Source of the DNA: Lutibacter sp. A80
GTDB taxonomy: Bacteria > Bacteroidota > Bacteroidia > Flavobacteriales > Flavobacteriaceae
Direction: 5' to 3'
Assembly (NCBI RefSeq): GCF_022429645.1
Contig: NZ_CP092480.1
Span: 2,400,501-2,464,500, forward strand
DNA length: 64,000 nt
The stretch's first letter is position 1. Each line of letters starts with the position of its first letter. The notes beneath the pieces were generated by a model. That model saw nothing but the letters and a program-made list of their open reading frames with translations, did no database searches and was not told where the DNA came from. Of the stretch, positions 1-36,450 are shown in pieces. Position numbers and translations under genes: made by a program.

Positions 1-1400
1 CTGTTGCTGCAATACTTACCTTAGCCACATCTTCATCGGTAATCGTTACGGTTGCTACATCTTTCGATGCATCAATAGTCGCATTGGAATCTCCTGAAGT
101 AATAGCGTCTAAAGTAACAATCACTGTTTCACTTGCCTCTAAAATAGCATTATCTACAACATCTACTGCAATCGTTACGGATGTATTTCCTGCTGGAATC
201 GTTGCTGTTCCTGTTAATGCAATATAATCTTCCGTTGCATTTGCTGTACCGGTTACAGTGTAACTAACAACTGTAGCTATACCTGATGCATTACTGATAC
301 TTATTCTAAACTCACCATTATCATTTGGCTCACTTGCTGTCGCATCTGTTGCTGCAATACTTACCTTAGCCACATCTTCATCGGTAATCGTTACGGTTGC
401 TACATCTTTCGATGCATCAATAGTCGCATTGGAATCTCCTGAAGTAATAGCGTCTAAAGTAACAATCACTGTTTCACTTGCCTCTAAAATAGCATCGTTT
501 ACTACGGTAACAGCTATTGTATTTGATAAGTCTCCTGCTGGGATTGTTACGGTTCCACTTAATGGTGTATAATCTTCCGTTGCATTTGCTGTACCAGCTA
601 CAGTGTAACTGATTACTGTTGCTACATCACTAGCATTACTGATACTTATTGTAAATTCTCCATTATCACTTGGCTCACTTGCTGTCGCATCTGTTGCTGC
701 AATACTTACCTTAGCCACATCTTCATCGGTAACCGTTACGGTTGCTACATCTTTCGATGCATCAATAGTCGCATTGGAATCTCCTGAAGTAATAGCGTCT
801 AAAGTAACAATCACTGTTTCACTTGCCTCTAAAATAGCATCGTTTACTACGGCAACAGCTATTGTATTTGATAAGTCTCCTGCTGGGATTGTTACGGCTC
901 CACTTAATGCTGTATAATCTTCCGTTGCATTTGCTGTACCAGTTACAGTGTAACTGATTACTGTAGCTACATCACTAGCATTACTGATACTTATTGTAAA
1001 TTCTCCATTATCACTTGGCTCACTTGCTGTCGCATCTGTTGCTGCAATACTTACCTTAGCCACATCTTCATCGGTAATCGTTACGGTTGCTACATCTTTC
1101 GATGCATCAATAGTCGCATTGGAATCTCCTGAAGTAATAGCGTCTAAAGTAACAATCACTGTTTCACTTGCCTCTAAAATAGCATCGTTTATTACGGCAA
1201 CAGCTATTGTATTTGATAAGTCTCCTGCTGGGATTGTTACGGTTCCACTTAATGCTGTATAATCTTCCGTTGCATTTGCTGTACCAGTTACAGTGTAACT
1301 GATTACTGTAGCTACATCACTAGCATTGCTGATACTTATTGTAAATTCTCCATTATCACTTGGCTCACTTGCTGTCGCATCTGTTGTTGCAATACTTACA
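1..1400 (-). repeat. Tandem 345-bp Calx-beta repeats, nearly identical
   Basis: The motif GCTGCAATACTTACC recurs at 6, 351, 696 and 1041, and a variant occurs at 1386, an exact 345-bp (115-codon) period. The first about 140 bp of each unit is almost identical. The second half varies: copy 1 resembles the more distant unit near 2580-2740, while copies 2-4 resemble each other. This mosaic suggests unequal recombination or gene conversion within the gene. The array may continue past the left edge. Confidence 0.9.
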
Positions 1401-4400
1401 TTGGCTTCATCATTATCGGTAATCGTTCCTGTAGCCTCTCCTTTTCCTTCTGAAATCGTTATTGCTTGGCCATTTGAATCACTTAAAGTAATTATTCCTT
1501 TAAAAGTTTCTGTTGGTTCTAATATTAAATCTCCTAATATATCTACTGGAATAGCAACAGTTGTACTTCCTGCTGGTATGGTATAAGTAGTTCCACTTTG
1601 AGCAATAAAATCTGTTGTTGCTGTTGCTGAATCTGCGGTTGTAGAAAAACTTAACTCAACATCTTCTTGTGCTTCTCCATTCATTGTTACTAATAAATTC
1701 ATTTTCTGAGCACTCTCGGTCTCTACTATTGAATTATTGGCAATACTTATTGTATACACATCATCATCCTTAATTGTTCCAATGACTTGTGTATCGTAAG
1801 CAACTAATGCATTACTACTATTTGAGAAGTTTAAATAAAAACTTTCTATTGGTTCCGCAATAGTATCTTCTGTTGTTGGAACTGATATGGTGATAGATTC
1901 TTCTCCTGTTGATTCTGTTCCTGTAAAATTCAATGGCCCTGAAGTTGTTGAATAATCTAAATCATCTAAAGCAATGGCTGAATCATCTGCGGTTGCATAA
2001 TCTATACTTACACCTCCTTGAACATTTCCAGTTAAAACTACTGTAAATACTGCATTATTTCCTTCATCTACTGTTACATCTTCAACAGAAAGCGTAGCTG
2101 TATCATTATCATTCAATACTGCTGTTGCTTGATTATCAAATGTCACCAGTGTATTACTAATGTCACTTAAATTCAGTACAAAATTTTCCACTGCTTCTAA
2201 ATAACTATCATCATTTGTAGGAACTGTAACTGTATAAAACTCTGCATCAGTTCCTGTAAAAGTAAGTGTACTAGATGTGTTTGTATAATCACCTGGTTCA
2301 ATAGCTGACCCATCTGCGGTTGCATAATTAATAGTAAATCCGCCCTGAACGTCTCCTGTTAAGCTTACCGTAAATACGGCATCTGCTCCTTCTGTAACTG
2401 TAATATCTCCAATTGCTAAGGAAGCTGCATCATTATCTGAAATGGTTACTGTTGCTTCATCATTATTAGTATCAATACTAGTATCAGCATCACCTGAAGA
2501 AATCGTATTTAAAGTTGCAATTACTGTTTCAGATGTTTCTAAGATATCATCTTCTTTAACATCTACTGCTATAGTTACAGATGTCTGTCCTGCTGGAATC
2601 GTTGCTGTTCCTGTTAATGCTGTATAATCAACCGTTGCATCTGCTGTACCGGTTACGGTGTAACTTACATCCGTATCAACATCACTGGCATTACTGATAC
2701 TTATTGTAAACTCACCATTATCACTTGGCTCACTCGCTGTTGCATCTGTTGCTGCAATGCTTACTAATGCCGTATCTTCATCATCTATAGTAACTGTGGC
2801 TTCATTTGTTATTCCTACTGAAATATCTGCATCACCAGAAGTAATAGCGTCTAAAGTAACAATCACTGTTTCACTTGCCTCTAAAATATCATTATCTACA
2901 ACTAAAACATCTATTGTTGCTGATGTACTTCCTGCTGGAATTGTTACGGTTCCGGTTAAAGTAGCATAATCTGTTGCTGAAGTTGCATCCCCTGAAATTG
3001 TATAACTGATTACAGTTTCAGTTGAAGATGCTAAGCCCATACTTACCGTAAACTGTCCGTCTGTACTTGGCTCGCTTGCTGTTGCTTTATTTGCTGTAAT
3101 ATTTACCGTAGTTTTATCATTATCGGTAATTGTACCTAAACCACTAGCATCTGAAAAAGTTATTAATCTTCCTCCAAAGTCATTTTCACTTAAATTAACT
3201 GTAAAGGTTTCTGTTGGTTCTAAAATATCATCGCCATTAACAACTATTGTTATGGTTTGTTCTTCATCTTTTGCTCCACTAAAAGTGATAGTATCCGTTT
3301 GGTAAATATAATCTAAACCAGCTAAGGCATCAATATTAGCAGTTGTGTAGTTTACAGAGAATGGACCATCGGTAGATTTTCCATTATGTGTTACTGTAAA
3401 TACATAATCTACTGTTGCTCCTCCATCATCTTCTACTTTTGTAACATCATCAATAGTTAAAGTAACCTCATCATTATCTATAATATTTCCAATCCCTGTT
3501 GAAATTGGTCCATTATTTAAAGTTACATTTTGACTGTTAGTTACTAATGAACTTAAAATACCACTAAATAATTCTGTTGGCTCAGCAATATCATCATCTG
3601 TAATAGTTACAGAAACTGTTTGTGGGTTAGATTTTGAACCTCCAAAAGTTAATGTGTCTGAAGAAATAGCATCATAATCTGAACTTGAAAGTGCGGAACC
3701 CTCTGATGTTGAAAATATAACTGTTACTTCATTTTGAATTTCTAAACTAGATGTAATTGTAAAATCTGCTGTACCACTAGCAACATCTTCATTCACGGTA
3801 AATCCAGCAATTGAAATAACTGCATTATCATCATCATTAATAGTACTTGTTGCTGTAGCTGTACCAATAGAAACTTGTTGACCATTAGCATTTACTAATG
3901 AAATTGTACCTGTAAATGATTCTTGAGGTTCAGTAATTACATCTCCAAGTACATTTACTGGAATATTAACAAATAAATCACCCGGGGAAATGGTATATAG
4001 TTCATTTGTTTGCGCTGTAAAATCTGTATCAGTTGCTGTACCATTTATTGTTGTAAACGAAATAACAATTTCTTCTTGAGCGGCAATATCTATCCTTGCT
4101 TCAAAATTATGTAATATGTTTCCATTTTCTTCAAAAGCTGTAAAACCAACTAAATTTATTGCTGTTACTGGATCATTATCTGTAATTGTTCCTATACCTT
4201 GTGCTTTAACTATTGATGCGCTACCTGTACTTAATATATTACTTAAATCAACTGTATATGTTTCGGTTGGTTCAGCAATTAAATTATCAATTATAGGAAT
4301 TGTAATTGTTTGTGTATCTCCTGTTATTGAACCTGCTGGGAATGTTACTGCAGTTCCTAAAGTTCCTGCAGTTAATGTATAATCGGATGGTTGGTTTGCA

Positions 4401-7400
4401 GGGTTTGCTCCTGTACCATCATTTGTTGTAAAGTCTACTGTTAATGCATCTTGAATATGCCCCGTTAAGGTTACCGTAAATACTGCTGTACCACTAGCAA
4501 CATCTTCCGTTACTGTTACATCATTAATAACAACGCTTGCAGCATCATTATCTGTAATAGTACTTGTTGCTGTTGGTGTTGGAATAGTTATTGCCTGACT
4601 ATTTGCAACTAAATTACTTAATGTTCCTTTTAATGTTTCTGAAGGTTCTACTAAATCATCATTATTAATAGTAACTTCTACAGTTTGAACTAAATCCTTT
4701 GTACCACCAAAAGTACGCGTAGTTGTGCCAACGGCTGTATAATCTGAACCTGCTAAGGCATTTCCTATAGCTGTTGCAAAATCTACCGTAAATTCATTTT
4801 GAACATTTCTACTAAGGGTTATTGTGAATACTGCTGTACCTGCAGCTTCATCAACATTAAATCCTGAAATTGAAAGTATTGCTGGATCGTTATCTTCAAT
4901 TGTATAAGTTGCTGTTGGTTTAGTTAAGGTAACTTGTTGCGCATTATAATTATTTTCACTAATTACTGCTGTAAATGTTTCTTCTGGTTCTGTTATATCA
5001 TCACCTAAAACATCTATTGGGATATTTACTGATGTGCTATCCGCTGGAATTGTTATTGTTGTGTATGTAGGTGTTGTATAATCATTTCCATTTAATGCTG
5101 TTCCTTCAGAAGTATCATAATTAAGTACAATGTCTTTTTCAGCAGCAATATTTGTACTTACAATATAATTGATTGTTTGAGTTCCGTCTGTTTCAGTTAC
5201 TGTTTTATCTTCTAATGTTATTTCAACAATATCATTATCTTCTATAGTCGCTGTTGCAACATCTCCTTCTACTGTAAATTCAACTTGTTGATTATTCTTA
5301 TTATTTATAGTAATAGTACCTGTGAATGTTTCTGTAGGTTCTGCAATTTCATCACCTGCAATAGTTGTTGCTAAAATATTTACATTCGCTGTTGAAAATG
5401 CTGGTAAATTAACATCTACATCAGATTGAGCTGTGAAATCACTTAGTGAAGTAGCTGTACCATTAGAGGTTGCAAACTTTAATAAAATTGGATATTGTGA
5501 TTGAATATTTTGACTTACATAAAAATTAGCTGTTTGCGGTGCTTCTGTTTCAGTAATTGTCGCAAAACTATGTAAGGTTAATTCTACAATGTCATTATCT
5601 ATAATTGTACCTAATCCCTCAGCATCAGAAAAACTAACTTTAGATTGCCCCGATGCGTTTAAATCTGTAAGATTAATATTGTAAGTTTCTGTAGGTTCTG
5701 CAATTGTATTTTCTACAATAGTAACATCAATACTTTTTGTTGTTCCATTTATTGAACCTGCTTCAAAAACAATTGGTGTTGAATTAATTGCGACATAATC
5801 ACTTGTAGCTTCTGCTGAAATATTGGCTGTAGCATAATTAAAAGAAACTGCTTCTTGAATTTCACCTGTTAACGTTACTGTAAATGTTGCTGTTCCATCA
5901 GCTTCATTTACTTCTACATCATCAATTGCCAAGGTTGCCGAATCGTCATTTGTGATGATTCCTGTTCCGATAGTATTCCCAAAAGTTATAGCACGTCCAT
6001 TATTTACCAAGTTACTTAATTCAACAGTAAATGTTTCATCAAGTTCTACTTTTGTATTTCCATTTACAAGTACCGTTATAGTTTTTGTAGTTTCTCCAGG
6101 AGCAAAAGTTAAAGTTCCTGATTTTTCAACATAATCTGAATCTTCAATAGTTGTTGCATTCTCATCTGCTGTTGTGTAATCTACTTTTACCTCAGCGTCT
6201 GAAATTTTTGATAAGGTAACTGTAAAATCATAGTTTGTAGTTCCACTATTCCCTTCATTATGAGTTACGGAATTTACAATAGCTACGGTTGGTGTATCAT
6301 CATTAGTAATGGTTCCAACGGCAGAATCTTGAGCAAATGTAATTGCTGTACTTGGTGCACTTACTGGTACTATATTACTTAAATTTACTTTGAATGTTTC
6401 ATCTAATTCTACCTTTTCATCTCCGTTGATAGTAACATCTATAGTTTTAGTTTCATTTGTTGTTCCTTCAAATGTTAAAGTACCAGAACTTGCAACATAA
6501 TCTGAGTCTGTTGTTGTAGCAGTATCGTCGGCAGTTGTATAGTCTACTGAAAGTCCGTCTTCAACATCCATACTTAAGGTTACGTTAAAAGTTAAGGTTT
6601 GTGTTCCAGAATGTCCTTCCGTAATAGTTTTATCTGCAATTGAAAGTGTTGCATTATCATCATTAGTAATGGTACCAATTCCTGTTTGTGCAGCGGAATT
6701 TATGGTAATATTTTTACCAGGAGCATTTACAGATGATAATACTACATTAAAAGTTTCGTTACTTTCAACAGCTGTATCTCCATTTACTTCAATTGTAATG
6801 GTTTGAGTTTCTCCAATACTTCCACTTCCTCCAGTAAAGTTAACAAGACCTCCACCAGCAGTAAAATCGGTTGGTGCTTTTGCTATACCATTTTGTGTAT
6901 AGAATGAAACGCTATAACCGCCAACTACCTCAGCTCCAGAATGTGTTACTATAAATTCGAAATTGGTTGTTCCACTATTTGTTTCAACTTGAGTAACACC
7001 TTCTATTGATAAAAATGCTGCATCATTGTCTTCATTATTTACAGAGACATCTTCTGGGTCTAGTAAGTCGTAATTGCTATCAATTGTTAATAATTCATTT
7101 ACCGTATTTTCAATAGTATACGCAATTGTACCATCAACTAAACTATCATCAACACCTGTAACTGTAATAGTTTGTGGAATATTCCAATTTAAATTAGTAA
7201 ATGTTAATTGTGATAAATTTACAGTACCTTCTGCAATATTGTTACTTGCAATATCTACAACTACAACTTGGGTTTGATCTAAGTCTGTACCTGGTTTACT
7301 TGTTAAAACCACCGTAAATGTTGCTGTTCCTCCAGCTTCAGTGGTTGTTAATGTTGTTGGTGTTACAATAAACCCTGCAGTATCGTTATCATTATTTACA

Positions 7401-10400
7401 ACTGCAACATCATCAACAACCATTGTATTGTAATTTGGATCGGTTGAAGCAGCCGCACTAGTAACAATAGTATAACCAACATTTCCATCAACTATGTTAT
7501 CATCTTTACCTGTTACAGTAACAGTTTGTGGTGAATTCCAATTATTTGCATCAAAAGTTAATGTACTTGTTGAAACTGTTCCTTCAGTAGTATCACTACT
7601 TATTAAGGTAATTGTAACATCGTGTGTTGGTTCTGTATCTAATACAACTGTAAATGTTGCTTCTCCTCCAGCTTCAGTAGTTGGACCACTTATTGTTGAA
7701 ACCGTCACCCCAGCTGTATCATTATCTATATTAGTTACACTTACATCGGCAGGATCAACATTTTCGTACCCTGATAAATCATCAGTTAAGCCTTTGTTTG
7801 TTGTTAAAACTATGGTATAAGGAATATCTCCATCGTCCACATTGTCATCTACACCAGTTACCGTTACAGTTTGTGGTTGATCCCAATTATCTGCATCAAA
7901 AGTTAATTTATTTGTACTAACTGTTCCTTCTGTTAAATCATTACTATCAACATCAAATACAACATCTCCTGTTGGTGCAAAAGGTAATACAACTGTAAAT
8001 GTTGCAGTGCCACCAGATTCAGTAGTTGGACCACTTATTTCTGAAACTAAAACTGTATTATCAGCTAACGCATTTACAGTAACAGTAAAACTACAAGTTT
8101 CTGTATTTCCTGCTGCATCTTTAACTGTATAAGTTACTGTTGATGTTCCTAATTTAAAATTATAAACTACAAGCGGATTAATACCCCCAGAAGTAGGATC
8201 CGGTATAGATCCTGTAGCCTCTAGTTCTATGATACCTGCTCCAGTTATAGCCCAACTTAATTCTGTTACAGCACAATTATCACCATAAATTGGTGCTATT
8301 ATACCCGAGATAAGTGTACCTAAACCTTCAGCAGTTGCTGCATCTTGCGTTATATTGTTTTGACATGTAATTGATGGGGCCTGATTATCTGTAACAACCA
8401 CATCAAAACTTACTGTTCCTGCATTTGGTATTGTTGCATGGTCTGCAACAATCCAAGTAACTGTTGTTGTTCCTTTTTCAAATACTTGACCGTTTAAAGT
8501 TGTATTTAGAGGGTTATTTAACAGAATTGTTGCTCCGGTTAATGCGTAGGTTATAGTTGGAGCCGTATCACAATTATCTGTTGGATCCCATGAATCATCT
8601 GTATGTGTATATGTACAAACATTTGCATCAACTACTTTATTTTTATCATTTAAATCATCTAAAGTTGGTGCTTCTGTGTCTTCAACTGTTACTGTTGTTG
8701 AAATAACATCTGAATTTCCAGCAGCGTCTGTTACTTTTAACCAAACTGTATTTGGACTAGTTGTAATGTCATCACATTCAAATTCTACTGATTCACCATA
8801 ACCACTTAATTCACTTTTTGAAATTTGATAAGTAACAATTCCACAATTATCTGAAGAGTTATTATCAATTTGAGAAGGAACAACCTCTACTTTACCATTT
8901 CTTCCTAATGCTACAGTTGCAGTTTGTGCACTAGCTGTAGGATTTTCATTATCTTTTACATTTACTGTAAATGAACAAGTTTCAGAATTTCCTGAAGCAT
9001 CTTTTGCTGTCCAGGTAATTGTTGTAATACCTTTTTGAAATACAACTCCATTAAGATCTGTTCCAGTAGCAGGAGAAGCTCCATTATTTGCGGAATATGT
9101 AATTGTTGGTGTTGCACCATCACAATTATCGGTTGCAGTAGCATTCCAATTCAAAGTTGAACCATCATGTGTATAAGTACACTCTCCTGAATCTGTATCA
9201 ACAATTTGTTCTCCTGAAACAGGGCAATCAATCTCTGGAGCTGTTATATCTTCAACTGTTACTAATGCAGTCGCTGTTGAAACATTGCCATTTTCATCAG
9301 TAACTGTTAATGTAACTGTATTAGTTGCTACATTTGCACCTAAATTAGTACAATCAAAATCTGTTTTATCTATAGCTAAACTTGCTATTCCACAACTATC
9401 ATTTGAACTATTATCTATTTGAGCTGCTGTAATTGTAGCATTTCCTGAAGCATCTAATTCAACAGTAATATCTTGTGTTTTTGCTATTGGTTTTACTTTA
9501 TCTACAACAGTTATAGTTGTTTTACAAATAGCTGTATTTTCTGCTATATCTGTTACTGTTAAAGTTACCTCGTTAGCACCTATATTGGTACAATTAAACG
9601 TATTTGGTGAAACTGTACGCGTTACAATTGAACAATTATCCGTTGAACCTGCTGAAATGGTATTTATATCTGCTTCAGATAAAGTATAAGTTCCTGCTGT
9701 ACTTAATTCAACTGTAATTGATGTACATGCTGCTACTGGAGCAATCTCATCTTCAACAGTTACTGTTGCATTACAAGTTGATTCATTACCACTTGTATCT
9801 GTAACTGTTAACTTAACAATATTATCCCCATAATCTGCACAAGTAAATGCTGTTTTACTTGCTACAATACTTTGTATTCCACAACTATCATTAGAACCAT
9901 TGTCAATATCAGCTGCTACTATTGAAGCGTTTCCTAAAGCATCTAATTGAATATTAATATTTTGACAAATAGCTGTTGGTAATTGATTGTCTTCAACTGT
10001 AACTGTATAAGAACATTGTACTGAATTATTAGATCCATCAATGGCTGTCCAAGTTACCGTAGTAGTTCCTTTATTAAATTCTTGTCCGTTTAGTGTTGTA
10101 TTTGCTGAATCATCTGCAAGAACAGTAGCTCCAGATAACGCATAGGTTAAACTTGAAATAGAACCACAAATATCTGTTGCAGTAGCATCCCAAGCTGTAT
10201 TATTGTGCGTATACGTACAAGTATTAAGGTCTGTATCAACAGTTTTGTTAGTTGTACAAGTAATTATTGGCTCTACACTATCTTCAACTGTTACTGTTGC
10301 AGTAGTTGTAGAAATATTGTTGTTGTTATCCGTAACGGTTAATGTAACAGTATTTGCACCTAAATTACTACAATCAAAATCTGTTTTATCTATAGCTAAA

Positions 10401-22821: not shown

Positions 22822-22838
22822 ATTTCTGTGGTTTTTTA

Positions 22839-23747: not shown

Positions 23748-23754
23748 GGTTTAA

Positions 23755-23796: not shown

Positions 23797-23808
23797 AAAT
23801 TAGTGTTT

Positions 23809-24112: not shown

Positions 24113-27100
24113 GGAATTATTGGCTCTGTAGCTATTTGATCCATATCATCTTCAAAAATATCATCATTATTAGGTGTAGAGTCTATGTCAAGCTCGTTTG
24201 CTGCAGTTATTTCTGCAACGTTTAACCAATCTCCTAATGGATTAACGTAAGCTGTAATTACCATTGTTTCTGAAGCACCGTTTAATACAGTTCCTAAAGT
24301 CCAAACTCCTGAACCATCATCGTAACTTCCTGTAGAAACATTAACACTAACAAAATTATATCCTGTTGGTAATAAATCAACTACTTGCACACCAGTTGCA
24401 TCACTTGGACCATTATTACTTACCGTAATTGTAAAGTCTACATTTGTTTCAGCATATGGTTGTAATACACCCGTTGTACTAACTGGACCTTGATTACCAA
24501 GAGATAAATCAACTTCTTTTGTTAACTCTAAATCAATAACTTTAATTGGATCGGTTGCGATACAACTTGTGTTATTTGATAAATCAGTATCTATTTGATG
24601 CATTTCAGTAATTTCAGCACAGTTTAAATAATCTCCTGCTGCATTTACTATTGCATCAACAAACAATGTTTCTGTTTCTCCATTTAAGATTGTTCCAACT
24701 ATCCATTTTCCAGTTTCATAATCATATACTCCTTTAGATAATCCGTGAGTTACATAAGTATAACCTGTAGGTAATAAATCTGTAACAACTACTTCTGTTC
24801 CATCTATAGTACCACCATTAATCAATCTAATTTCAAAAGAAACTACATCTCCAACTAATGGTTCAATATTATTTGCCATTACAGTTTTTTCAACTTTTAA
24901 ATCTAATTCTTGATATGGAGGTACCGATGCACTATCATAATCATCTTCATTTACATCACCATTATTTGGCGTAGAATCTACATCTATTTCATTGGCTGCT
25001 GTTATTTCTGCAATGTTAAGATAATCACCACTTTCCATAACTATTACATCTACTATTAATACTGCAGTATTTCCTACTTCAATAAAACTAATATCCCAGA
25101 TTCCTGTTATTGGATCGTAAATTCCTATTGATTGACTATAATTAACAAAATCATATCCTGATGGAATTAAGTCTGTAACTTGAACTCCAGTTGCTTCTGT
25201 TGGACCATCATTGTTTACTCTAATTTCAAATGAAATCATATCTCCTACTTCAGGATTAACCACATCATCTACAACCGTTTTAGTTAAACTTAAATCTATA
25301 TAAGCTGTTGGTACAATTGAAACACTTCCTACATTATTTGTAGTATCTGAATCTGATTGGTCTGCAATTACTGCACGTGTTGTGTTTGTAATTGTTTGTC
25401 CTAATGTTCCATCATTAACTGTTGCTGTTATGTTTAATGTTGCTGTTGCTCCATTTGCTAATTCTCCAATTGTCCACAATCCTGATCCATAATTATATGT
25501 TCCTGATGCTGTTGAATTACTTACATAAGTAACTCCTACTGGTAAATTATCTATTAAACTTACACCTGTGGCAGCACTTGGTCCGTTATTTGTAACTGCA
25601 ATAGTATAAGTAATTGTATCGCCCTCATTTGGAGTAGCATTACTTACTGTTTTTACAGTTGCTAAATCTGAACTTGTAACTACAATTGTTGCGTTAGCAT
25701 CATCTTCTGTTAAGTTTGAATCTATTTGGTCTTGGGTATTAGACACTGTGTTTATTAATGTCATTCCACCTTGATCCATTCCTACAATTGCTTCTATAAC
25801 TATAGTTTCTTCTTCTCCAGATTCTAGTAAATCAACTTTCCAATTTGGTGCGTTCCACGTTCCATCACTTGGCATAACATTCGCATAGGTTAAACCTGCT
25901 GGTAAAGCATCGGTTACTACTAAATTGGTAACTTTTGCTGGACCGTTATTTCTAACCGTAACAGTGTAAGTTACTGTATCTCCTGCATTTGGTGTAGCAT
26001 TATCTACAACCTTAGTCAATACTATATCTGCATGGTTTTCTACAATTATTATTGCATCTAAATCATCTCCTTCTGTTGTTGGATCTGATTGATCTCCTGT
26101 TGCTGCTGTAGTTATATTTGTTATAGTTTCTCCTGCAGTATCAATAGCAACGGTTGCTGTAATATTTAAGGTTGCTGTTGCTCCATTTGCAATAGTTCCA
26201 ATATTCCAGTTTCCATCTCCAGAGTTATAGCCTCCAGATTGATTATCACTTACATAAGTAACTCCTGCTGGTAATAAATCTACTAAACTTACACCTGTAG
26301 CATCACTTGGTCCGTTATTTGTAACTGCTATACTATAAGTAATGGTATCTCCTTCATTTGGAGTTGGATCACTTACCGTTTTTACTGTTACTAAGTCTGA
26401 ACTTGTTACTACAATTGTTTCGTTATCATCATCTTCTGTTAAGTTTGAATCTACTTGGTCTTGTGTATTTGACACGATGTTTGTCAATGTCATTCCACCT
26501 TGATCCATTCCTACTAGAGCTTCTATAACTAACGTTTCAAACTCTCCAGACTCTAATAAATCTACATTCCAATTTGGTGCAGTCCATGTTCCATCACTTG
26601 GCATAGCTCCATTTGGTACATATGTTAAACCTGTTGGTAAAGCATCTGTTACAACTAAGTTAGTAACTTTTGCAGGCCCATTATTAGTAACTGTAATAAC
26701 ATATGTTACAATATCTCCAACATTTGGTGTCGCATTATCTACAACCTTAGTCAAGACAATATCTGCATAATTCTCAACTTCAATAGTAGCTTCTAATTCA
26801 TCTCCTGCTGTTGATGGGTCTGTTTGATCTCCTGTTGCTGCAGTGGTAGCATTTGTAATAAAAGTTCCTGCAGTATCTACATCTACTGTTGCAGTAATAT
26901 TCAAGGTTGCTGTTACACCGTTTGCTATAGCTCCTATTGTCCATATTCCTGATCCACTATTAAAAGCGTCTCCTTGATCATCGCTTACATAAGTAACTCC
27001 TGCTGGTAATAAATCTGTTAAACTCACCCCTGTAGCATCACTTGGTCCGTTATTAGTAACTGCTATAGTATAAGTAATTACATCTCCTTCGCTTGGAGTT

Positions 27101-30100
27101 GGATCACTTACGGTTTTTACTGTTACTAAGTCTGAACTTGTTACTACAATTGTTTCTCTATCATCATCTTCTGTTAAGTCTGAATCTACTTGGTCTTGTG
27201 TATTTGAAACTATGTTTGTTAACGTTTGACCACCTTGATCCATTCCTACAATTGCTTCTATAACTATGGTTTCCTCTTCACCAGATTCTAGTAAATCAAT
27301 ACTCCAATTTGGTGCTGTCCAAGTACCATCACTTGGCATAACATTCGCATAGGTTAAACCTGTTGGTAAAGCATCAGTTACAAGTAAACCTGTAACTTTT
27401 GCAGGTCCGTTGTTTCTAACTGTTACTGTATAGGTTACTGTATCGCCAGCATTTGGTGTTGCATTGTCTACTACTTTAGTTAACACTACATCAGCATAAT
27501 TCTCAACATCAATATCAGCGTCTAAATCATCTTCAGGGAACCCTTCAGTTGTTGTATCTGGGTCTGTTTGATCACCTGATGCTGCAGTTGTTACATTAGT
27601 TATTCTTTGTCCTGAGGTATCTTCATCAACTGTGGCTACAATATTTAAAGTTACCGTTTTACCAACATCAATACTTCCAACCATCCAGTTTCCGTCACCA
27701 CTATTGTACGCACCTGACTGATTATCTCCCACATAGGTAACACCTGCTGGTAATAGATCTACAAGACTCACATTTGTTGCAATACTTGGTCCATAATTAG
27801 TAACTGCTATTGAGTAAGTAATGGTCTCTCCTTCTACTGGATTTGGATTACTTACCGTTTTTATTGTTACTAAATCTGAACTAGTTACTACAATTTCCTC
27901 TTCTAAATCATCTCCATCTGTTGTTGGATCTAATTGATCTCCTGAAGCAGGATTATCAATAATATTAGTTATTGGTGTTTGATCAAATGTTCCTTGTGCA
28001 GTAACAAGTGCATCTAAAGTTAAGGTTGCTGACTCTCCAATATCAATTATTCCAATTGTCCAAGTCATATTTCCGGCAATATCAGCATAAGTATTTACTG
28101 AACCTCCCGTAGCTACATGAGTTACATACTCAAGACCTGCTGGTAGATTATCAATTAAACTTACTCCTGTAGCAACACTTGGTCCATTATTAACCACTGT
28201 AATCGTATATTTAACGATATCGCCTTCATTAGGATTACTATTATCTACAGTTTTAGTTGTTACTAAATCTGTAACACCTAGTGGCGTTGTTGTTGCTTCA
28301 TCTTGATCATCTTCTTCTGGATCATTATTTCCATGTATTGAATTTGGATCATCTTGATCTGCATATACAACTTCGGCAGTATTTGTATAAATTCCACTTT
28401 CATTAACAACAGCTCTAATTGTTAAGGTTGCAACACTTCCATCAACTAAATCTCCTAAATCCCAAAGACCTGTAGTTGGTCCACTTGGATGATAATCTCC
28501 TTGACTTACAGTTATTGGATTTGGATCTGGTGATAACGTATAACCTGTAGGTAATACATCTAATACATCAATATTAGTAGCATCACTTGGACCTTCATTA
28601 GTAACTGTAATGGTAAAAGTAACTTCCGAACCAACTTCTGGTGTAGCATTATCTACCCTTTTTTCTACTACTAAAGCAGCTTGTGCATACATCTCATCAA
28701 CATCTGTTGAACTATTATTACTAGGATCTGGATCTACTGGCTCATTAAACCCATTTGATTCTGGTAAAGCAGCACTTGCTGTATTTACAATATCTCCAGT
28801 ATAACCACTAGGAACATTTATTGTTACCGTATATGTTACAGTATCTCCTGAATTTAATGTTGTAATAGTATCTACTATATCTCCTGAGCCTGAAGAACCA
28901 TTTCCAGTCCAAGTTGTAACAGCTTCTAAATTCGAAATAATATCATCATTTACAATAACGCCTGCAGCATCCGCTGGTCCATTGTTTGTAACCGTTATCG
29001 TATAAACAAGTGGTAAACCTGGTGTATACGTATCAGAATTATCTGTTTTTACAACCTGAATATCTGCTTGCGCTATATATATAATAGTTACTAATGCATC
29101 ATTAGATTGATTTCCTTCATCATCCTCAACATTATATGTTATTGGAGTTGGACTTAAAATAAATCCATCTTCAGGGTCAAAAGTAATTTCACCTGTTACT
29201 AAGTCTACATTCCAAGTTCCTTCTCCTGGAATTTCATAACTTGTAATATCTCCATTGGCATCTGTAACAATATTTATTGCTGTACCTGGATCTACTAAAC
29301 TAACCGTTGTAGGGTCATAAGTATCTCCTGTTGTATCATTATCCAATACATCAACTGTAACTGTTTCATTTGCAGGATAACCTTCATTACCATTATTATC
29401 AACATCATCTGTTGCTATTGGTGCATAATCTACATGTATAAATGCTTCATTAGACGTGTTTCCTTCGTCATCTTTAATTGTATAAGGAATTGGTGTTGGA
29501 TCTAACGTATAATCAGCTGCATCACCATTTGCTATCGATTCAGGTGTAAATGTTACAACACCTGATGCAGTAATTTCCCAAGTTCCTTCTCCTGAAACAA
29601 CTAATATAGTTTCATTTGTTAATGGGCTAGATGGATCTAAATCTATCGTTGAAGGATCAACAATATCTCCATCTAAATCATTATCTGATACATTAACACT
29701 AACTGAAGTTAAAGGCACATTTCCTGGTGTACTATAATCATCTGTTGCTACTGGAACATAATCAATTGTTACTGTTGCATTGTTCGATTTATTTCCATCA
29801 TTGTCTTTTATTGTATATTCAATTACTGTTGGATCATCATTAAATGTTGAAAGTGGTGTAAAAGTAATTTCACCAGAAATTGGATGAACACTCCATGTAC
29901 CTTCACCAGGAACTGTAAAACCAATTACATCTCCATCACTATCAATAGAAACATCTGTTACCGTTATTGAAGGTACTGGCATTACTAAACTTACAGATTC
30001 TGGTTCAACTGAACCATCAGCATCACTATCGACATCGTCATTTCCTACTCCTGTTGCAACTATATTATCTATTAAAACATCAATTGTAACTGCATCACCT

Positions 30101-31596
30101 GGTGTATTTCCAAGACTTTCGTCATTAACAGCCACTGGTGGAATTTCAACGAAGTATATAGAAACTGTTGCTTCATTTGAAACATCTCCATCATTATCTT
30201 CAATTGTATATGTTATAGGTGTTGGATCTCCCGTAAACCCAGTTTCTGTTGTAAATGTAATTTCTCCAGTTGTATTATCAACTGTCCAAACTCCTTCACC
30301 CGGAACAATTAATTGGTCTAATGTTCCATTAACATCCGCATCTGAATCTGTAGCTCCTGGACTAGTAATATTAATTGTTGAAACTTGTACTGTACCATCT
30401 GGATCAGTATCAACACCATTTGTATTATCAGCAATTAAATCAATAATTACAGATGGTTCTGTTGCATGACTATGACCTGTACTAATATCATCTTCAGCAA
30501 TTGGAAATGCATTCACTTCAACTTCTTCCTGTAAATCATTTCCATCATCTGTTAGATCTGTTTGATCTCCTGAAGCAGGTGTCGTTAAATTTAGAATACT
30601 AGTACCTTGTGTACCTTCATCAATAGAAACATCAATTGTTAAAGTTACTGTTGCATCCACTGCAATGTCTCCAATAGTCCAAACTCCTGAAGCTTGATTA
30701 AATGCTGTTCCAGGTGGAGCTAAATGACTCACATACGTTACTCCAGCAGGAAGAATATCTGTTAAACTAACTCCGGTTGCCGCTGTAGGACCATCATTGT
30801 TTTCAACTGTTATTGTGTACCTAATTACATCACCTTCATTTGGATTGTTTGCAGATGAACCTGCAACAGAAACTGCTGAAACAGTTTTAATAGTTACTAA
30901 ATCTGCTATATTAACAGGTACTATATCTGCTGCATCTTGATCGTCTTCATTAATATCATCATTACCTGGTGTAGAATCTGGATCATACTGGTCAGCTCCG
31001 ACAATTTCTGCAAAATTGGTATATTGTCCTGTTGGAAGCACCGTTGCAGTTATTTCTAAAGTTGTAGAAACACCTGGCGCAATACTAGCAATAACCCAGT
31101 TTCCATCTACAGAAGTATACGCAGAGGAAGCGTCTACCACTCCATTAACTGTATGTGAAACATAACTAAAACCTGTTGGTAAATAGTCTTTTACGTGCAC
31201 ATTTGTAGCGGTATTTGGACCATTATTATTAGTTACTGTAATGGTGAATATAACATTTTCTCCAACGTTTGGCGCTGGTTCGTTTACCGTTTTTGTTAAT
31301 TCTAAATCTGCAGCTGGAAGTGGTGTAGGAGTAACAGAATCATCATCATCTTCATTGCTTCCTACTCCATTACCTGGAGTAGAATTGGAATCTTTTTCTG
31401 GGTTTCCAGGAGCACCTATATTTGTTACTTCAGCTGTGTTTGTATAATTTCCTGTTGTTGTTAAGGTTGCTGTTATATCTAATGTTGCACTATCTCCATT
31501 GGCTAAATCTCCAACAGCCCAAACTATAGTTGGGTCTCCTGAGGTAGCAGGATCTGTACTCACCAATGTATATCCATCAGGTAAATAGTCTGTGAC
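23809..31596 (-). CDS. Giant DUF11/CshA-like adhesin, C-terminal part with T9SS type B sorting domain (after in-frame TAG)
   Basis: This frame continues the gene that starts at 36450 and is split from it only by the TAG at 31597-31599. The first possible start, TTG at 31566, lies inside a DUF11 unit with no visible ribosome site, so I do not take this as an independent gene. Order: end of one DUF11 unit, two more DUF11 units, four CshA-fibril-like units (about 30515-29080; EGTWxVxxxTGEITFxP then PTPITYTIxDxxGNxSN), thirteen DUF11 units of about 120 residues (KTVxxxxPNEGDxITYTIxVTNNGPSxATGVSLxDLLPAG), then a C-terminal about 100-residue domain (IPEGFTPNGDGVNDVFEI, YPNFSMEIVNRYGNKVYEY, LPTGTYFYTIYF, ending GWIYLRK). 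That last domain is the gliding-motility-associated type B CTD recognised by T9SS. The next gene is porP/sprF-like. Confidence 0.88.
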   Translation of the reverse strand, partial: VTDYLPDGYTLVSTDPATSGDPTIVWAVGDLANGDSATLDITATLTTTGNYTNTAEVTNIGAPGNPEKDSNSTPGNGVGSNEDDDDSVTPTPLPAADLELTKTVNEPAPNVGENVIFTITVTNNNGPNTATNVHVKDYLPTGFSYVSHTVNGVVDASSAYTSVDGNWVIASIAPGVSTTLEITATVLPTGQYTNFAEIVGADQYDPDSTPGNDDINEDDQDAADIVPVNIADLVTIKTVSAVSVAGSSANNPNEGDVIRYTITVENNDGPTAATGVSLTDILPAGVTYVSHLAPPGTAFNQASGVWTIGDIAVDATVTLTIDVSIDEGTQGTSILNLTTPASGDQTDLTDDGNDLQEEVEVNAFPIAEDDISTGHSHATEPSVIIDLIADNTNGVDTDPDGTVQVSTINITSPGATDSDADVNGTLDQLIVPGEGVWTVDNTTGEITFTTETGFTGDPTPITYTIEDNDGDVSNEATVSIYFVEIPPVAVNDESLGNTPGDAVTIDVLIDNIVATGVGNDDVDSDADGSVEPESVSLVMPVPSITVTDVSIDSDGDVIGFTVPGEGTWSVHPISGEITFTPLSTFNDDPTVIEYTIKDNDGNKSNNATVTIDYVPVATDDYSTPGNVPLTSVSVNVSDNDLDGDIVDPSTIDLDPSSPLTNETILVVSGEGTWEITASGVVTFTPESIANGDAADYTLDPTPIPYTIKDDEGNTSNEAFIHVDYAPIATDDVDNNGNEGYPANETVTVDVLDNDTTGDTYDPTTVSLVDPGTAINIVTDANGDITSYEIPGEGTWNVDLVTGEITFDPEDGFILSPTPITYNVEDDEGNQSNDALVTIIYIAQADIQVVKTDNSDTYTPGLPLVYTITVTNNGPADAAGVIVNDDIISNLEAVTTWTGNGSSGSGDIVDTITTLNSGDTVTYTVTINVPSGYTGDIVNTASAALPESNGFNEPVDPDPSNNSSTDVDEMYAQAALVVEKRVDNATPEVGSEVTFTITVTNEGPSDATNIDVLDVLPTGYTLSPDPNPITVSQGDYHPSGPTTGLWDLGDLVDGSVATLTIRAVVNESGIYTNTAEVVYADQDDPNSIHGNNDPEEDDQDEATTTPLGVTDLVTTKTVDNSNPNEGDIVKYTITVVNNGPSVATGVSLIDNLPAGLEYVTHVATGGSVNTYADIAGNMTWTIGIIDIGESATLTLDALVTAQGTFDQTPITNIIDNPASGDQLDPTTDGDDLEEEIVVTSSDLVTIKTVSNPNPVEGETITYSIAVTNYGPSIATNVSLVDLLPAGVTYVGDNQSGAYNSGDGNWMVGSIDVGKTVTLNIVATVDEDTSGQRITNVTTAASGDQTDPDTTTEGFPEDDLDADIDVENYADVVLTKVVDNATPNAGDTVTYTVTVRNNGPAKVTGLLVTDALPTGLTYANVMPSDGTWTAPNWSIDLLESGEEETIVIEAIVGMDQGGQTLTNIVSNTQDQVDSDLTEDDDRETIVVTSSDLVTVKTVSDPTPSEGDVITYTIAVTNNGPSDATGVSLTDLLPAGVTYVSDDQGDAFNSGSGIWTIGAIANGVTATLNITATVDVDTAGTFITNATTAATGDQTDPSTAGDELEATIEVENYADIVLTKVVDNATPNVGDIVTYVITVTNNGPAKVTNLVVTDALPTGLTYVPNGAMPSDGTWTAPNWNVDLLESGEFETLVIEALVGMDQGGMTLTNIVSNTQDQVDSNLTEDDDNETIVVTSSDLVTVKTVSDPTPNEGDTITYSIAVTNNGPSDATGVSLVDLLPAGVTYVSDNQSGGYNSGDGNWNIGTIANGATATLNITATVAIDTAGETITNITTAATGDQSDPTTEGDDLDAIIIVENHADIVLTKVVDNATPNAGDTVTYTVTVRNNGPAKVTNLVVTDALPAGLTYANVMPSDGTWNAPNWKVDLLESGEEETIVIEAIVGMDQGGMTLINTVSNTQDQIDSNLTEDDANATIVVTSSDLATVKTVSNATPNEGDTITYTIAVTNNGPSAATGVSLIDNLPVGVTYVSNSTASGTYNYGSGLWTIGELANGATATLNITATVNDGTLGQTITNTTRAVIADQSDSDTTNNVGSVSIVPTAYIDLSLTKTVVDDVVNPEVGDMISFEIRVNNDGPTEATGVQVTDLIPSGYDFVNYSQSIGIYDPITGIWDISFIEVGNTAVLIVDVIVMESGDYLNIAEITAANEIDVDSTPNNGDVNEDDYDSASVPPYQELDLKVEKTVMANNIEPLVGDVVSFEIRLINGGTIDGTEVVVTDLLPTGYTYVTHGLSKGVYDYETGKWIVGTILNGETETLFVDAIVNAAGDYLNCAEITEMHQIDTDLSNNTSCIATDPIKVIDLELTKEVDLSLGNQGPVSTTGVLQPYAETNVDFTITVSNNGPSDATGVQVVDLLPTGYNFVSVNVSTGSYDDGSGVWTLGTVLNGASETMVITAYVNPLGDWLNVAEITAANELDIDSTPNNDDIFEDDMDQIATEPIIPLTIPEGFTPNGDGVNDVFEIEYLEVLYPNFSMEIVNRYGNKVYEYKHDGNPYQTPEWWDGYSTGRWNFTNDQLPTGTYFYTIYFNNDERKPQTGWIYLRK
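25667..28280 (-). repeat. Higher-order tandem repeat of DUF11 pairs, period about 735 bp
   Basis: The string TCTGAACTTGT or its close variant recurs at 25667, 26396, 27131 and 27875 (spacings 729, 735 and 744 bp). Each period encodes two alternating DUF11 types, one starting SDLVTVKTVS and one starting ADIVLTKVVDNATPN. Adjacent copies are close to identical over long stretches, so the pair was duplicated as a unit. Confidence 0.85.
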
Positions 31597-31599
31597 CTA
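31597..31599 (-). other. In-frame TAG interrupting the giant DUF11 adhesin
   Basis: The frame reads GPNDATGV, TAG, VTDYLPDGYTL. Sister units read ATGVQVTDLIPSGY and ATGVQVVDLLPTGY, so a Gln (CAG) is expected and a single C-to-T change gives TAG. The frame then continues open for 7.8 kb to the natural stop. Confidence 0.88.
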
Positions 31600-34500
31600 A
31601 ACCCCAGTTGCATCATTTGGCCCAGAGTTACTTACAGTTAACGTAAATATAACATCCTCTCCAATATAAGGAGTTGGATTATTAATAGTTTTTTCAAGTG
31701 AAATATTTACTAGTGGATTTCCACCTATTGTTACACTAGCATCATCATCTTCATTTATACTATCATTTCCAGGTGTAGAATCTGGATCAATATTATCAGA
31801 TCCACTTATTTCTGCATAATTCGTATGTGATCCTGTAGTTTCAATTATAATATTATAAGTAAGAAGCTTAGTAGCTCCTCCAGAAATACTTAATCCTGAC
31901 CAATTTAACTCATTAGCTCCTGCATTATATGTTCCGCCATCGCTTATACTACCTGGTACAATAGAAAAACCACTAGGTAATTTATCTTTAACAGAAACAT
32001 CTGTCGCTTCATATACGCTTGTTTGGTTGCGTATTTCAATTTGATAAGTAAGCATATCTCCTACAAAATAAGGAGATGAAGTAGGGTTAATAATACTTTT
32101 ACTTAAATTTAAATCAACTTCTGGATAAATTGTAATAAATACAGTGTCACTTGTTGTAGCACATGGGCTATTATCAACTGTCCATTCAAACTCATAAGTT
32201 CCTGGTTCAGTACTTGCAATTATAGTATTTGGATTATTTACCTCTAATATATTTGGTATTGAAGGCCCTCCAATAAATGTCCAAGTTCCAATACCGGAAT
32301 TTGGAGTAGTTGCATTCATTGTCACTACAGTAGTTTCCTCTAAAAATTGATCAGGACCAGCATTCGTATTTGCTTCCGCTTGTGTTACCGTTACTAAAAC
32401 AAAATCTTCTAAAGAACACTCTCCTCCAGGATTACTTACTGTCCATTTAAATTCATAAACACCTTCCTCTAATCCAGACACCGTTGGATTGATAACTCCT
32501 GAATCTGAAAAAGAGACTGTACCTGAGCCCAAAGGTTGAGATTCAACTGACCAAAGACCAACATCTGAACCGTTTATTGGATCGGCATTTAAACCTGTGC
32601 TTAATACAGGTGTGATATTAGTTTTACAGAGTTCTTGATCTAAGCCAGCGTTAGCTGGAGCTGGTGGGTTTCCAGAAAAAATTATAGTTACAGAAGCTGT
32701 TTTAGCTGTACATATTTCATTTGAAACAGTCCATGTAAATGTATAAGAACCATCTTGTAAATTATCTGGGTCTGCTATTGTTAAACCAGTAGTAGGACTA
32801 TTTGGACTATCAATAACAATATCTCCTGGTGTATAGCCAGCAGGAACATGAGGAGTTGCTTCATTTAATTCCCAAACCCCAATACCAAACGCAGGTGCAG
32901 TTGCTTCTAATTCTGTAAATAATTGACAAGAACTACTACCGTTTACAGTAATAATATTAGGATCGCTAGGTTCTGCATATACACGCACAACAACTTCATC
33001 CTTTATACTTGGGCAATTACCTGAAGTTGAAGAATTCCATTCAAAAACATAAACTCCCTCTATTAAATTGGTAAATGTTTCATTTTCAGTGGTTGATCCT
33101 ATTTCTACTGGAATTGTTGGCCCGCTAGCTAAAGTCCAAGTTCCAGTATCTGGAGCTACATTATTTGCTGCCATTGTTACAGAATTCGTATCTCCTAAAC
33201 AAATTTCTTGATTTGGTCCAGCAATTGGTTCTATAGTTGGTGGCGCAGTAGTTGTAACAGTTATTGAATCTGAAGATTCACAAGATCCACCTTTATCTAT
33301 AGTGTATGTAAACACATAAGTATCTCCAGGAACAATTGTATAATTAGTAACATTTGTTGAAGCGATTACTGCTCCATTAGGAACTGCATTTACGCTAGTA
33401 AGAACCCATTCTACAGGAACTCCACCACCTTCATTACCTTGTAAAAGCACACTCGTTGCATTACATAAATCTTGATCTACCCCTGCAACAGCTGTAGCTA
33501 CAACATTAAACGAAACGTCTGCTGAGCTTGGAGGGCATATACCTCCGTTTGAAATTGTCCAACGAAATGTGTACGAGCCAGACATCAATCCTGTTACAGC
33601 TGATGTTGGGTCATTGATATCGAAATTAGGTGTATTTGGACCTGATACAACAGACCAACTTCCTATATTACCAGGTTCTACAGGTGCATTTCCTGTTAAT
33701 ATTGTTGTAGTATCATTACAAACATCTGCTATTGCAGCAGTTGTAGCAATTTCCGCAGGTAAACCTACCGTAAATTTCATTGGCTCTGAAACAACAGATG
33801 ATCCACAACCATTTGTAACTACATATTCAAATTCATAATTACCCGGAGCCAAACCGTCAAGTTGAGCATTAATATCATTTTCATTAGTTGAATTTCCATA
33901 AGTCCAAGAACTATCTCCTGATAATTGATTCCAAGTTCCAGTTAAGCCATTAGGTAAAGCATCTGCATTAATTCCCAATATTACTGAATTCCCTGAAGTA
34001 TCAGCACAAACTACTTGATCATCACCTGCATAAAAAGTTGCAGGTAAATCTGCAATTGTAATAGTTACGGAGTCTGATTTATCATCACAAGCTGTATTTG
34101 AAACAGTCCATAAAAACTCATATACTCCTGGTGATAATTCTGATGAAATAGTAACTGTTTCAGAAGCACTTGGTAATTCTGATACAGTCGGACCTGAAAT
34201 TTGTGTCCATTCTCCTGTTGAACCAGCTTCTAAAGGCGCTGCTATTAAATCATAACTTGTAACTGAGGCATCGTAACATTGATCATCTCCTGCATCTGGT
34301 AAAGATGCCGTAAAATTCGAAGTTATAATTTCAACACTACTAGATGCAGTTCCACAAGCAGGATTTGTACCCACAACAGTCCATGTAAATTGATAAGGTC
34401 CGTCAACATGTGTAGCATCTACAGATGGTTCCAAACCTATAACATAAGTATCTGGTTCTGTAGCATCAACAAAAGAAACACCAGCAGTAGGTCCAGAAGT

Positions 34501-36450
34501 TTGAGTCCATACTCCAGTCTCTCCAGTACCTAATGGATTTCCAGGCAATTGATACACACCAGCACAGGCATTATTTGAAAAGGGTACAAATGTAAAAGGT
34601 GGTGGTGCTATTGATACTGTTAATTGCATATCATCTACAGAATCAACTCCTCCATCACCAGCTTCAATATGCCATCTAAAAATATATACACCATTAATAA
34701 GTCCATTAACTGTAGGATTATAAACATTTTTAATACCACCAACAAAATTTGCTGTATTTGGACCAGATACTTGAGACCAATACCCCGTATTTGGTTCTGG
34801 TTGGTTCCCCGAAAGAATCGCATCTGTATCTCCACAAGACAATGCTACATCTGTTCCTGCATTGGTACCAACTCTATAGATATTACCTTCTGAATAATCT
34901 CTTGAAACTATAATATTAATTTCATCTGAAACTGAGCCACAATTAGTTCTAATATCACCATCAGTATCTCTTAACACTCTTATAGTATAAGTTCCTATTT
35001 CCGTTAAACCAGAAAAGTTGAAATTATAAGGACCTGTACCTGATACACTTAAATTTAAGTCACCAATACCTATCCCCGCTGGTGCACTAATTAACTCATA
35101 ATCAAAATCGTTACCCCCTGAAAATATTATTGGAATAGAACCAGAAGTAGCTTCAGGAGCTAAAATTTCATTTATTACACCTCCGTTTAATTCTATTGAA
35201 GATGCAGGAGCTATGTGACTTATTGTAAACGTTTCAGTAGAACTACATATTTCATCAGTTCCTAATGATAATGGAGGACCTAAATCTGGCCCTGTTATAG
35301 TATATGTAAATGTATAAGAATCACCAATACTAGTTGCTGGAAAAGTAACTAAAGTAGTAGCACTTGTACTTGAAACGATATTAACCCCAGAAGGTGATCC
35401 AACAACTTGCCACTCAGCAGTTTCACCAGCATATAAAGGTGTATTTGCCTCTAAAACAGCAGACGAAACAGATGAACAAAAAACTTGATTTGTATTAATC
35501 CCTACAGCATCTGTAACATCTTGAGTTGCAGCAGGCACAGTAATTTTTACAGTATCAGTTCCTGAAGCACAAGGCCCAGAAACAGTCCAACGCATTATAT
35601 ATTCTCCTTCTACTAAGTTTGATAATGAACTTTCATTATTATTAATATCTCCAATAGTAGGTGTTGAAGGACCTGAAACAAAAGACCAAACTCCAATTTG
35701 CCCACCAGTTCCGTTTCCACCTATTGAAGCATCAAGATTTGTACTTTGAGTTACTGAATAACATTCACTAATATCTTGGTCTGCACCTGCATCTACAGGT
35801 ATTTCTCCACCATAATTTGTAACCTCAACAGTATCGCTTGAGCTACAACTATCGCTGCTTATTGTCCAACGTAAAACCGAAACACCTACAGAAGTATCTG
35901 GAAGTGTTAATGTTGCATTTGGATTATTTAAATCTGAAATACTTATCTCAACAGGTGGTCCTGATTCTACTGTCCATGTACCAATTTCTCCGGCTCCAGT
36001 ATCTGCAGGATTAGCACTTAATTGATAACTACCAGGACAACCTTCAATTGCAGAACCAGCATCAGCTATAGTATTTGAATTAACTGTAAACGTTACTTCC
36101 TGAAAAGTTGTAGAAGAATCCGAACATATAGATGTTAATCTAAACGAGTAAACATTACCTCCAGTTATCCCTAAAACATTTGTTACCGGACTACTTGGAT
36201 CAACAATTACTACTGGAGGTCCATCAACTTGTTCCCAATTAGAGGATGCCGTATTACCGGAACTAACAACTCCCTGTAATGTTAAGGTTTCAGATTCGCA
36301 AATTGTTAAATCTAAACCAGCATTTACAGTACATATTTGCGCATACAACGAATTAGTTGCAACAATGGTACTCAAAAACAACACAAAGGTTAAAAGTGTT
36401 TTTTTGAAGTTTAAGCCAGATTTTTTTTTGACAACGTAATTTTTTTCCAT
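31597..36450 (-). CDS. Giant PKD-like/DUF11 adhesin, N-terminal part (1617 aa before a premature TAG)
   Basis: Starts MEKNYVVKKKSG, with a hydrophobic core at about residues 17-33 and cleavage near LYAQ. Residues about 40-1440 hold about 15 PKD/Ig-like units of about 95 residues, most with an NAGxDQxxC opening, a W(T/S)xxSGP centre and a GxYxFxWTVSN close. A first DUF11 unit starts near residue 1442 and a second is cut by the TAG. The whole gene, counting the TAG as a residue, has 4213 codons before its natural stop at 23809. The N-terminal fragment alone lacks the T9SS sorting domain. It is the first gene of the minus-strand adhesin, porP, ompA group. The role as a cell-surface adhesin or gliding-type filament is inferred from architecture and the type B CTD downstream. 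Confidence 0.88.
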   Translation of the reverse strand: MEKNYVVKKKSGLNFKKTLLTFVLFLSTIVATNSLYAQICTVNAGLDLTICESETLTLQGVVSSGNTASSNWEQVDGPPVVIVDPSSPVTNVLGITGGNVYSFRLTSICSDSSTTFQEVTFTVNSNTIADAGSAIEGCPGSYQLSANPADTGAGEIGTWTVESGPPVEISISDLNNPNATLTLPDTSVGVSVLRWTISSDSCSSSDTVEVTNYGGEIPVDAGADQDISECYSVTQSTNLDASIGGNGTGGQIGVWSFVSGPSTPTIGDINNNESSLSNLVEGEYIMRWTVSGPCASGTDTVKITVPAATQDVTDAVGINTNQVFCSSVSSAVLEANTPLYAGETAEWQVVGSPSGVNIVSSTSATTLVTFPATSIGDSYTFTYTITGPDLGPPLSLGTDEICSSTETFTISHIAPASSIELNGGVINEILAPEATSGSIPIIFSGGNDFDYELISAPAGIGIGDLNLSVSGTGPYNFNFSGLTEIGTYTIRVLRDTDGDIRTNCGSVSDEINIIVSRDYSEGNIYRVGTNAGTDVALSCGDTDAILSGNQPEPNTGYWSQVSGPNTANFVGGIKNVYNPTVNGLINGVYIFRWHIEAGDGGVDSVDDMQLTVSIAPPPFTFVPFSNNACAGVYQLPGNPLGTGETGVWTQTSGPTAGVSFVDATEPDTYVIGLEPSVDATHVDGPYQFTWTVVGTNPACGTASSSVEIITSNFTASLPDAGDDQCYDASVTSYDLIAAPLEAGSTGEWTQISGPTVSELPSASETVTISSELSPGVYEFLWTVSNTACDDKSDSVTITIADLPATFYAGDDQVVCADTSGNSVILGINADALPNGLTGTWNQLSGDSSWTYGNSTNENDINAQLDGLAPGNYEFEYVVTNGCGSSVVSEPMKFTVGLPAEIATTAAIADVCNDTTTILTGNAPVEPGNIGSWSVVSGPNTPNFDINDPTSAVTGLMSGSYTFRWTISNGGICPPSSADVSFNVVATAVAGVDQDLCNATSVLLQGNEGGGVPVEWVLTSVNAVPNGAVIASTNVTNYTIVPGDTYVFTYTIDKGGSCESSDSITVTTTAPPTIEPIAGPNQEICLGDTNSVTMAANNVAPDTGTWTLASGPTIPVEIGSTTENETFTNLIEGVYVFEWNSSTSGNCPSIKDEVVVRVYAEPSDPNIITVNGSSSCQLFTELEATAPAFGIGVWELNEATPHVPAGYTPGDIVIDSPNSPTTGLTIADPDNLQDGSYTFTWTVSNEICTAKTASVTIIFSGNPPAPANAGLDQELCKTNITPVLSTGLNADPINGSDVGLWSVESQPLGSGTVSFSDSGVINPTVSGLEEGVYEFKWTVSNPGGECSLEDFVLVTVTQAEANTNAGPDQFLEETTVVTMNATTPNSGIGTWTFIGGPSIPNILEVNNPNTIIASTEPGTYEFEWTVDNSPCATTSDTVFITIYPEVDLNLSKSIINPTSSPYFVGDMLTYQIEIRNQTSVYEATDVSVKDKLPSGFSIVPGSISDGGTYNAGANELNWSGLSISGGATKLLTYNIIIETTGSHTNYAEISGSDNIDPDSTPGNDSINEDDDASVTIGGNPLVNISLEKTINNPTPYIGEDVIFTLTVSNSGPNDATGV

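What the first reader, a model, noticed from the sequence alone, without database searches (positions are those of the whole stretch)
1..36450. Two neighbouring giant surface genes each carry exactly one nonsense codon
Both stops separate the signal peptide from the export domain: the N-terminal pieces would enter the periplasm without a T9SS tag, and the C-terminal piece of the DUF11 adhesin has the tag but no signal peptide. One truncation in each of two adjacent adhesins, different stop codons and otherwise clean frames, suggests selection against display (for example laboratory growth), a reversible on/off state by point mutation, or stop read-through. Independent errors in long repetitive genes are the plain alternative.
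Basis: inference. Interest (0 to 1): 0.75.

Follow-up and report, generated by a model that had tools for sequence, protein, structure and literature searches.

The report
Two giant surface genes recently broken
A marine bacterium carries two neighbouring giant surface-protein genes that each contain one premature stop, most likely recent loss-of-function changes rather than a new way of reading the code, so the find is of modest interest.

Summary
In a Lutibacter-like genome (3.93 Mb, one contig) two neighbouring giant T9SS type-B adhesin genes each carry one in-frame stop between signal peptide and secretion domain: TAG at 31597-31599 (gene A, 1617 + 2595 codons) and TGA at 14774-14776 (gene B, 2023 + 8965 codons; its tagged end lies outside the window). 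In about 959 kb of this genome (24%) no other intragenic stop was seen. The four orthologous stretches compared (one for A, three for B) read through in sense. Neither stop region has a close copy in the genome. No suppressor tRNA was seen (incomplete list), no SelB passes its cut-off. With no second stop or frame break in 11,560 downstream codons the stops must be very recent, unless the downstream parts are still read. Best reading: recent loss of two redundant adhesins, while 8 of 10 type-B cargo genes stay open. The nearest relative's gene A is broken independently, by a frame change. Consensus error is the main rival; only reads can exclude it. Side finding: the PorP/PorE-like anchor module beside gene A is identical over 1.7 kb at two loci 737 kb apart, and likewise in the relative, yet differs by 14% between the two genomes.

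The parts
31600..36450 (-). Gene A, upstream piece: signal-like N-terminus, K319L-type PKD domains and the first DUF11 domains (1617 aa)
31597..31599 (-). In-frame TAG inside a DUF11 domain of gene A
   Evidence: sense codon at the aligned place in G011 (L194)
23809..31596 (-). Gene A, downstream piece: DUF11 and CshA-type repeats, T9SS type-B CTD, no signal peptide (2595 aa)
22839..23747 (-). PorP/SprF-family outer-membrane protein, partner of gene A (302 aa)
   Evidence: PF11751 1.5e-87, TIGR03519 269 bits, cut-off 90.55
21223..22821 (-). PorE-like OmpA/PD40/CarboxypepD_reg protein (532 aa)
   Evidence: PorE model 280.5 bits, below its cut-off of 600
22133..23841 (.). 1709-base tract identical to the second copy of this module near G000:C1:3.16 Mb, in opposite orientation
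21160..21197 (-). Inverted repeat, possible terminator between the A cluster and gene B (read by eye; not listed by the terminator scan)
   Evidence: scan
14777..20845 (-). Gene B, upstream piece: signal-like N-terminus and HYR domains (2023 aa)
14774..14776 (-). In-frame TGA in gene B, followed by C
   Evidence: sense codon at the aligned place in G019, G014 and G009 (L204-L206)
1..14773 (-). Gene B, downstream piece; it continues outside the window to L009:7876 (8965 codons in all) and ends in a T9SS type-B CTD, followed by its own PorP and PorE-like genes

Best explanation
Genes A and B encode two very large T9SS type-B surface adhesins, each with a PorP-family and a PorE-like partner. Each has acquired one nonsense mutation very recently, in this isolate or its close lineage. 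The upstream piece should enter the periplasm by Sec but lacks the C-terminal tag; the downstream piece has the tag but no signal peptide, so neither adhesin should reach the surface in full. The loss is tolerated, or was favoured, because these adhesins are fast-evolving and redundant: eight other genes with this tag remain open. Shown: the stops, the open frames, the domains, and their absence from the relatives compared. Inferred: that the stops are real, that translation ends there, and why the loss was tolerated (culture, phage pressure or niche).
For: Only two intragenic nonsense codons among 48 same-frame ORF pairs in 959 kb of this genome, both here (judged by eye). Stops absent from 4 of 4 orthologous stretches: G011 for A, G019, G014 and G009 for B. 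B is one open frame of 10,083 codons in G019. No second lesion in 2595 and 8965 downstream codons, which bounds neutral divergence since the stops to below 0.0096 (A) and 0.0031 (B), against dS of about 0.15 between G000 and G019 in B. 8 of 10 TIGR04131 genes of G000 open. In G019 the syntenic gene A is broken independently by a frame change within about the first 300 residues, while its second locus is open. Fast evolution of B: dN/dS 0.46-0.51 over 5200 codons, mosaic identity.
Against: No reads, no second isolate and no expression data. The downstream frames are so clean that a consensus error or continued reading would look the same. Neither truncated protein appears in another record among the 120 best hits listed, so the stops rest on one assembly. 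The G019 frame change lies in a short T run and could itself be a sequencing error.
Confidence: 0.62

Rival explanations
1. One or both stops are consensus errors of the assembly, and the genes are intact in the cell.
For: Both downstream frames are perfectly clean. Both stops rest on a single record. Relatives have sense codons there. The sequencing method is unknown to me.
Against: Both are substitutions, not the indels that dominate long-read errors (recalled). At this density about 40 further stops would be expected in the other 913 kb scanned, and none was seen (my arithmetic). Neither region has a close copy that could mislead polishing: best other match in the genome 77% over 93 bases (A) and 81% over 52 bases (B).
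Confidence: 0.25
2. The stops are read through (leaky or programmed), so some full-length adhesin is made.
For: The downstream frames are clean. TGA is followed by C, a weak termination context in E. coli (recalled).
Against: Stops absent from 4 of 4 orthologous stretches. No CTA, TCA or TTA anticodon among the tRNAs read, though the list is incomplete: 150 of 415 candidates were scored, and no tRNA-Ala or tRNA-Ile turned up. SelB: 8 matches, none over the cut-off. RF2 present and a probable RF1. Two different stop codons would need two different decoders.
Confidence: 0.06
3. A reversible on/off state of display, with the stops as off states.
For: Locus A is broken in two different ways in two relatives, and recombination between locus A and its second locus is recent in both genomes.
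Against: Neither stop lies in a simple repeat listed by the tandem-repeat scan, and no close donor copy exists for either. The identical tract covers the anchor genes and only the last bases of gene A, not the stop.
Confidence: 0.05

Closest known systems
SprB/SprF and other T9SS type-B CTD adhesins with PorP-like partners (Flavobacterium johnsoniae; PMC9143113, abstract and passages)
   Same: Giant repetitive protein, signal-like N-terminus, type-B CTD, adjacent PorP/SprF-family gene
   Different: Here each cluster also has a PorE-like gene, which the sprB locus lacks according to the passage read; both adhesins are interrupted
Nonsense-truncated motility or surface genes of Flavobacteria, such as gldB with a premature stop in F. 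psychrophilum FPS-S11B (PMC8400371, passages)
   Same: A single premature stop in a gene of the gliding/T9SS surface machinery of one isolate
   Different: There a machinery gene with a phenotype; here two giant cargo genes, no phenotype known
Rough, non-gliding, phage-resistant variants of F. columnare (PMC7345892, passages)
   Same: Loss or change of surface structures under phage pressure or in culture
   Different: No link to phage was tested here; the rough type is described there as prone to revert

Membership tests
T9SS type-B CTD cargo | Type-B CTD over the curated cut-off at the C-terminus | tested here: met
   A and B: TIGR04131 over the 35-bit cut-off; CHU_C
T9SS type-B CTD cargo | Sec signal peptide in the same protein as the CTD | tested here: not met
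   As translated, the stops separate the two in A and B; signal peptides judged by eye
T9SS type-B CTD cargo | Adjacent PorP/SprF-family gene | tested here: met
   PF11751 and TIGR03519 over cut-off beside A and B
Mobile gliding adhesin (SprB type) | PorP-like partner without a PorE-like neighbour (postulate in PMC9143113) | tested here: not met
   PorE-like genes beside both adhesins, 280.5 and 297.6 bits to the PorE model, below its cut-off of 600
Nonsense pseudogene | Premature in-frame stop, with sense codon in orthologues | tested here: met
   4 of 4 orthologous stretches compared
Nonsense pseudogene | Loss of the product in the cell | not testable with these tools
   Needs proteomics
Programmed read-through or selenoprotein | Conserved stop and a decoding tRNA or SelB | tested here: not met
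   tRNA list incomplete
Phase-variable contingency locus | Switching element at the lesion (simple repeat, inversion site or donor copy) | tested here: not met
   Tandem repeats; copies in the genome. Inversion sites were not searched for
Phase-variable contingency locus | Both states present in the population | not testable with these tools
   No reads

The most novel reading that the evidence does not exclude
The adhesin loci form a recombining set in which the anchor module (PorP plus PorE-like) is kept identical between two distant loci by gene conversion while the adhesins diverge, swap C-terminal tags and are switched off one at a time; broken locus A would be a resting copy whose anchor proteins still serve the second locus, so that the displayed adhesin changes over generations.
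Probability: 0.1. Interest if true: 0.55.

Novelty: new member of a known kind. Interest (0 to 1): 0.3.

Why it matters
If real, it is a clean case of two neighbouring giant adhesins, one of nearly 11,000 residues, lost so recently that all else is intact, beside a homogenised anchor module. That makes a comparison of isolates informative about what selects for or against display. It is also a caution for annotation: the pieces would be called four unrelated proteins, two of them tagged but without a signal peptide.

Tried and rejected
Selenocysteine or suppressor reading: not supported; the tRNA search scored 150 of 415 candidates and gave no tRNA-Ala or tRNA-Ile, so it is incomplete. Supply of the stop by a paralogue, by conversion or mis-polishing: no close copy. 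A polar effect of the A stop on B: a perfect inverted repeat and a gap of about 380 bases lie between the clusters, so one transcript is not obvious; the promoter scan gave 16 sites against 17.9 expected and says nothing. Sister isolates with the same truncation: none among the 120 best hits listed in each of two searches (286 and 963 hits in all). The closest, P0004, is 87% identical but ends near residue 950, before the stop. Identifying the strain or its sequencing method from papers: not achieved. Type-A cargo (19 TIGR04183 matches) was only glanced at in 8 loci and not evaluated.

Frame changes were not scanned for systematically; the two noted (G019 gene A, L057) came up while checking N-termini.

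Full report
Where it is. The window is G000:C1:2400501-2464500 of a 3.93 Mb single-contig genome. The nearest named relatives of its PorP gene are Lutibacter (88% to 84% identity for the best seven loci), and G012, placed in the same genus, has the length reported for L. profundi LP1, 2,966,978 bases (abstract start in the listing). The species is not known to me.

The observation. Gene A runs from 36450 to 23809 and gene B from 20845 to L009:7876, both on the minus strand. Each frame holds one stop, TAG at 31597-31599 and TGA at 14774-14776. Both downstream pieces carry the type-B tag. Beside each lie a PorP/SprF-family gene and a PorE-like gene.

How unusual. In 559 kb of this genome 23 same-frame ORF pairs separated by one stop were found; 21 are gene boundaries by eye and 2 are these. 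A further 400 kb gave 25 pairs, none intragenic. 400 kb of G019 gave 24 pairs, none intragenic. An earlier scan, with 150 codons on each side, of 141 sequences (1.76 Mb, window and overlapping loci included) gave 56 pairs, again only these 2. The judgement was by eye and the thresholds miss stops near gene ends.

The same family elsewhere. G000 has 10 TIGR04131 matches, 9 over the cut-off: 8 genes are open from a signal-like N-terminus to the tag, 2 are broken by these stops. G019 has 10: 9 open, 1, its gene A, broken by a frame change. Of 42 matches in six other genomes, I fetched the N-terminal region of 16: 15 open, 1 in a run of N; the others were not fetched. In 77 named loci around the PorP gene, 75 have an ORF just upstream of it; 46 run open to the locus edge and 29 begin inside. 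Of those 29, 24 begin with a signal-like N-terminus, 2 begin in a run of N, 2 are not adhesins, and 1 (L057, Polaribacter) lacks it, with a signal-like piece in another frame just before. No nonsense break was seen among them; two frame breaks (G019 gene A, L057) were. Breaks of such genes are therefore not unique to this genome, but nonsense breaks were seen only here.

Age. Relatives have sense codons at the aligned places: G011 for A, G019, G014 and G009 for B. With no further stop in 2595 and 8965 downstream codons, neutral divergence since the stops is below about 0.0096 for A and 0.0031 for B (95% bounds from zero events). dS between G000 and G019 in B is about 0.15, lowered in places by mosaic blocks of 97-99% identity. 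The stop in B lies in a diverged block between nearly identical ones, so recombination has acted there; whether it brought the stop is not known.

Mechanism. The reading with the least to assume is nonsense loss of two redundant, fast-evolving adhesins. Read-through, recoding and switching were tested as far as possible and found little support. Consensus error cannot be excluded without reads. An even error rate that gives two stops in 45.6 kb would give about 40 in the other 913 kb scanned, and none was seen, so only isolated errors remain possible. Culture or phage pressure as the cause is conjecture; PMC7345892 (passages) describes phage-linked loss of gliding colony type in F. columnare.

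Side finding. The PorP gene is identical, base for base, at 2.42 and 3.16 Mb in G000, and likewise at the two loci of G019, but differs by 14% between the genomes (dS 0.95). The identical tract is 1709 bases in G000 and 2513 in G019. Sites and flanks are syntenic, yet the C-terminal tags are swapped: G000 A matches G019's second locus and G000's second locus matches G019 A (equal bit scores 47.9 and 42.5). This is concerted evolution, most simply by gene conversion (inference). One paper search on this listed 8 of 1,077 papers; by title and abstract none concerned it.

Noticed in passing
window 22133-23841 and G000:C1 near 3.16 Mb (L101); G019 L104 and L107: The PorP plus PorE-like anchor module is identical over 1709 bases between two loci 737 kb apart (2513 bases in G019), but 14% different in PorP between the two genomes: concerted evolution, with C-terminal tags swapped between loci.
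   Followed up: partly
window 21166 to L009:4904: The gene B cluster (about 36 kb) is absent at the syntenic place in G019, where 85 bases separate the flanking matches; G019's gene B lies about 360 kb from its gene A.
   Followed up: partly
G019 gene A (L105) and L057 (Polaribacter sp. MSW5): Two further adhesin genes of this family are broken near the N-terminus by a frame change; sequencing error not excluded.
   Followed up: partly
window 1-1427 and L009 10095-20000: Gene B holds long arrays of about 330-345-base repeats; about 1,000 residues of this region have no aligned counterpart in G019.
   Followed up: no
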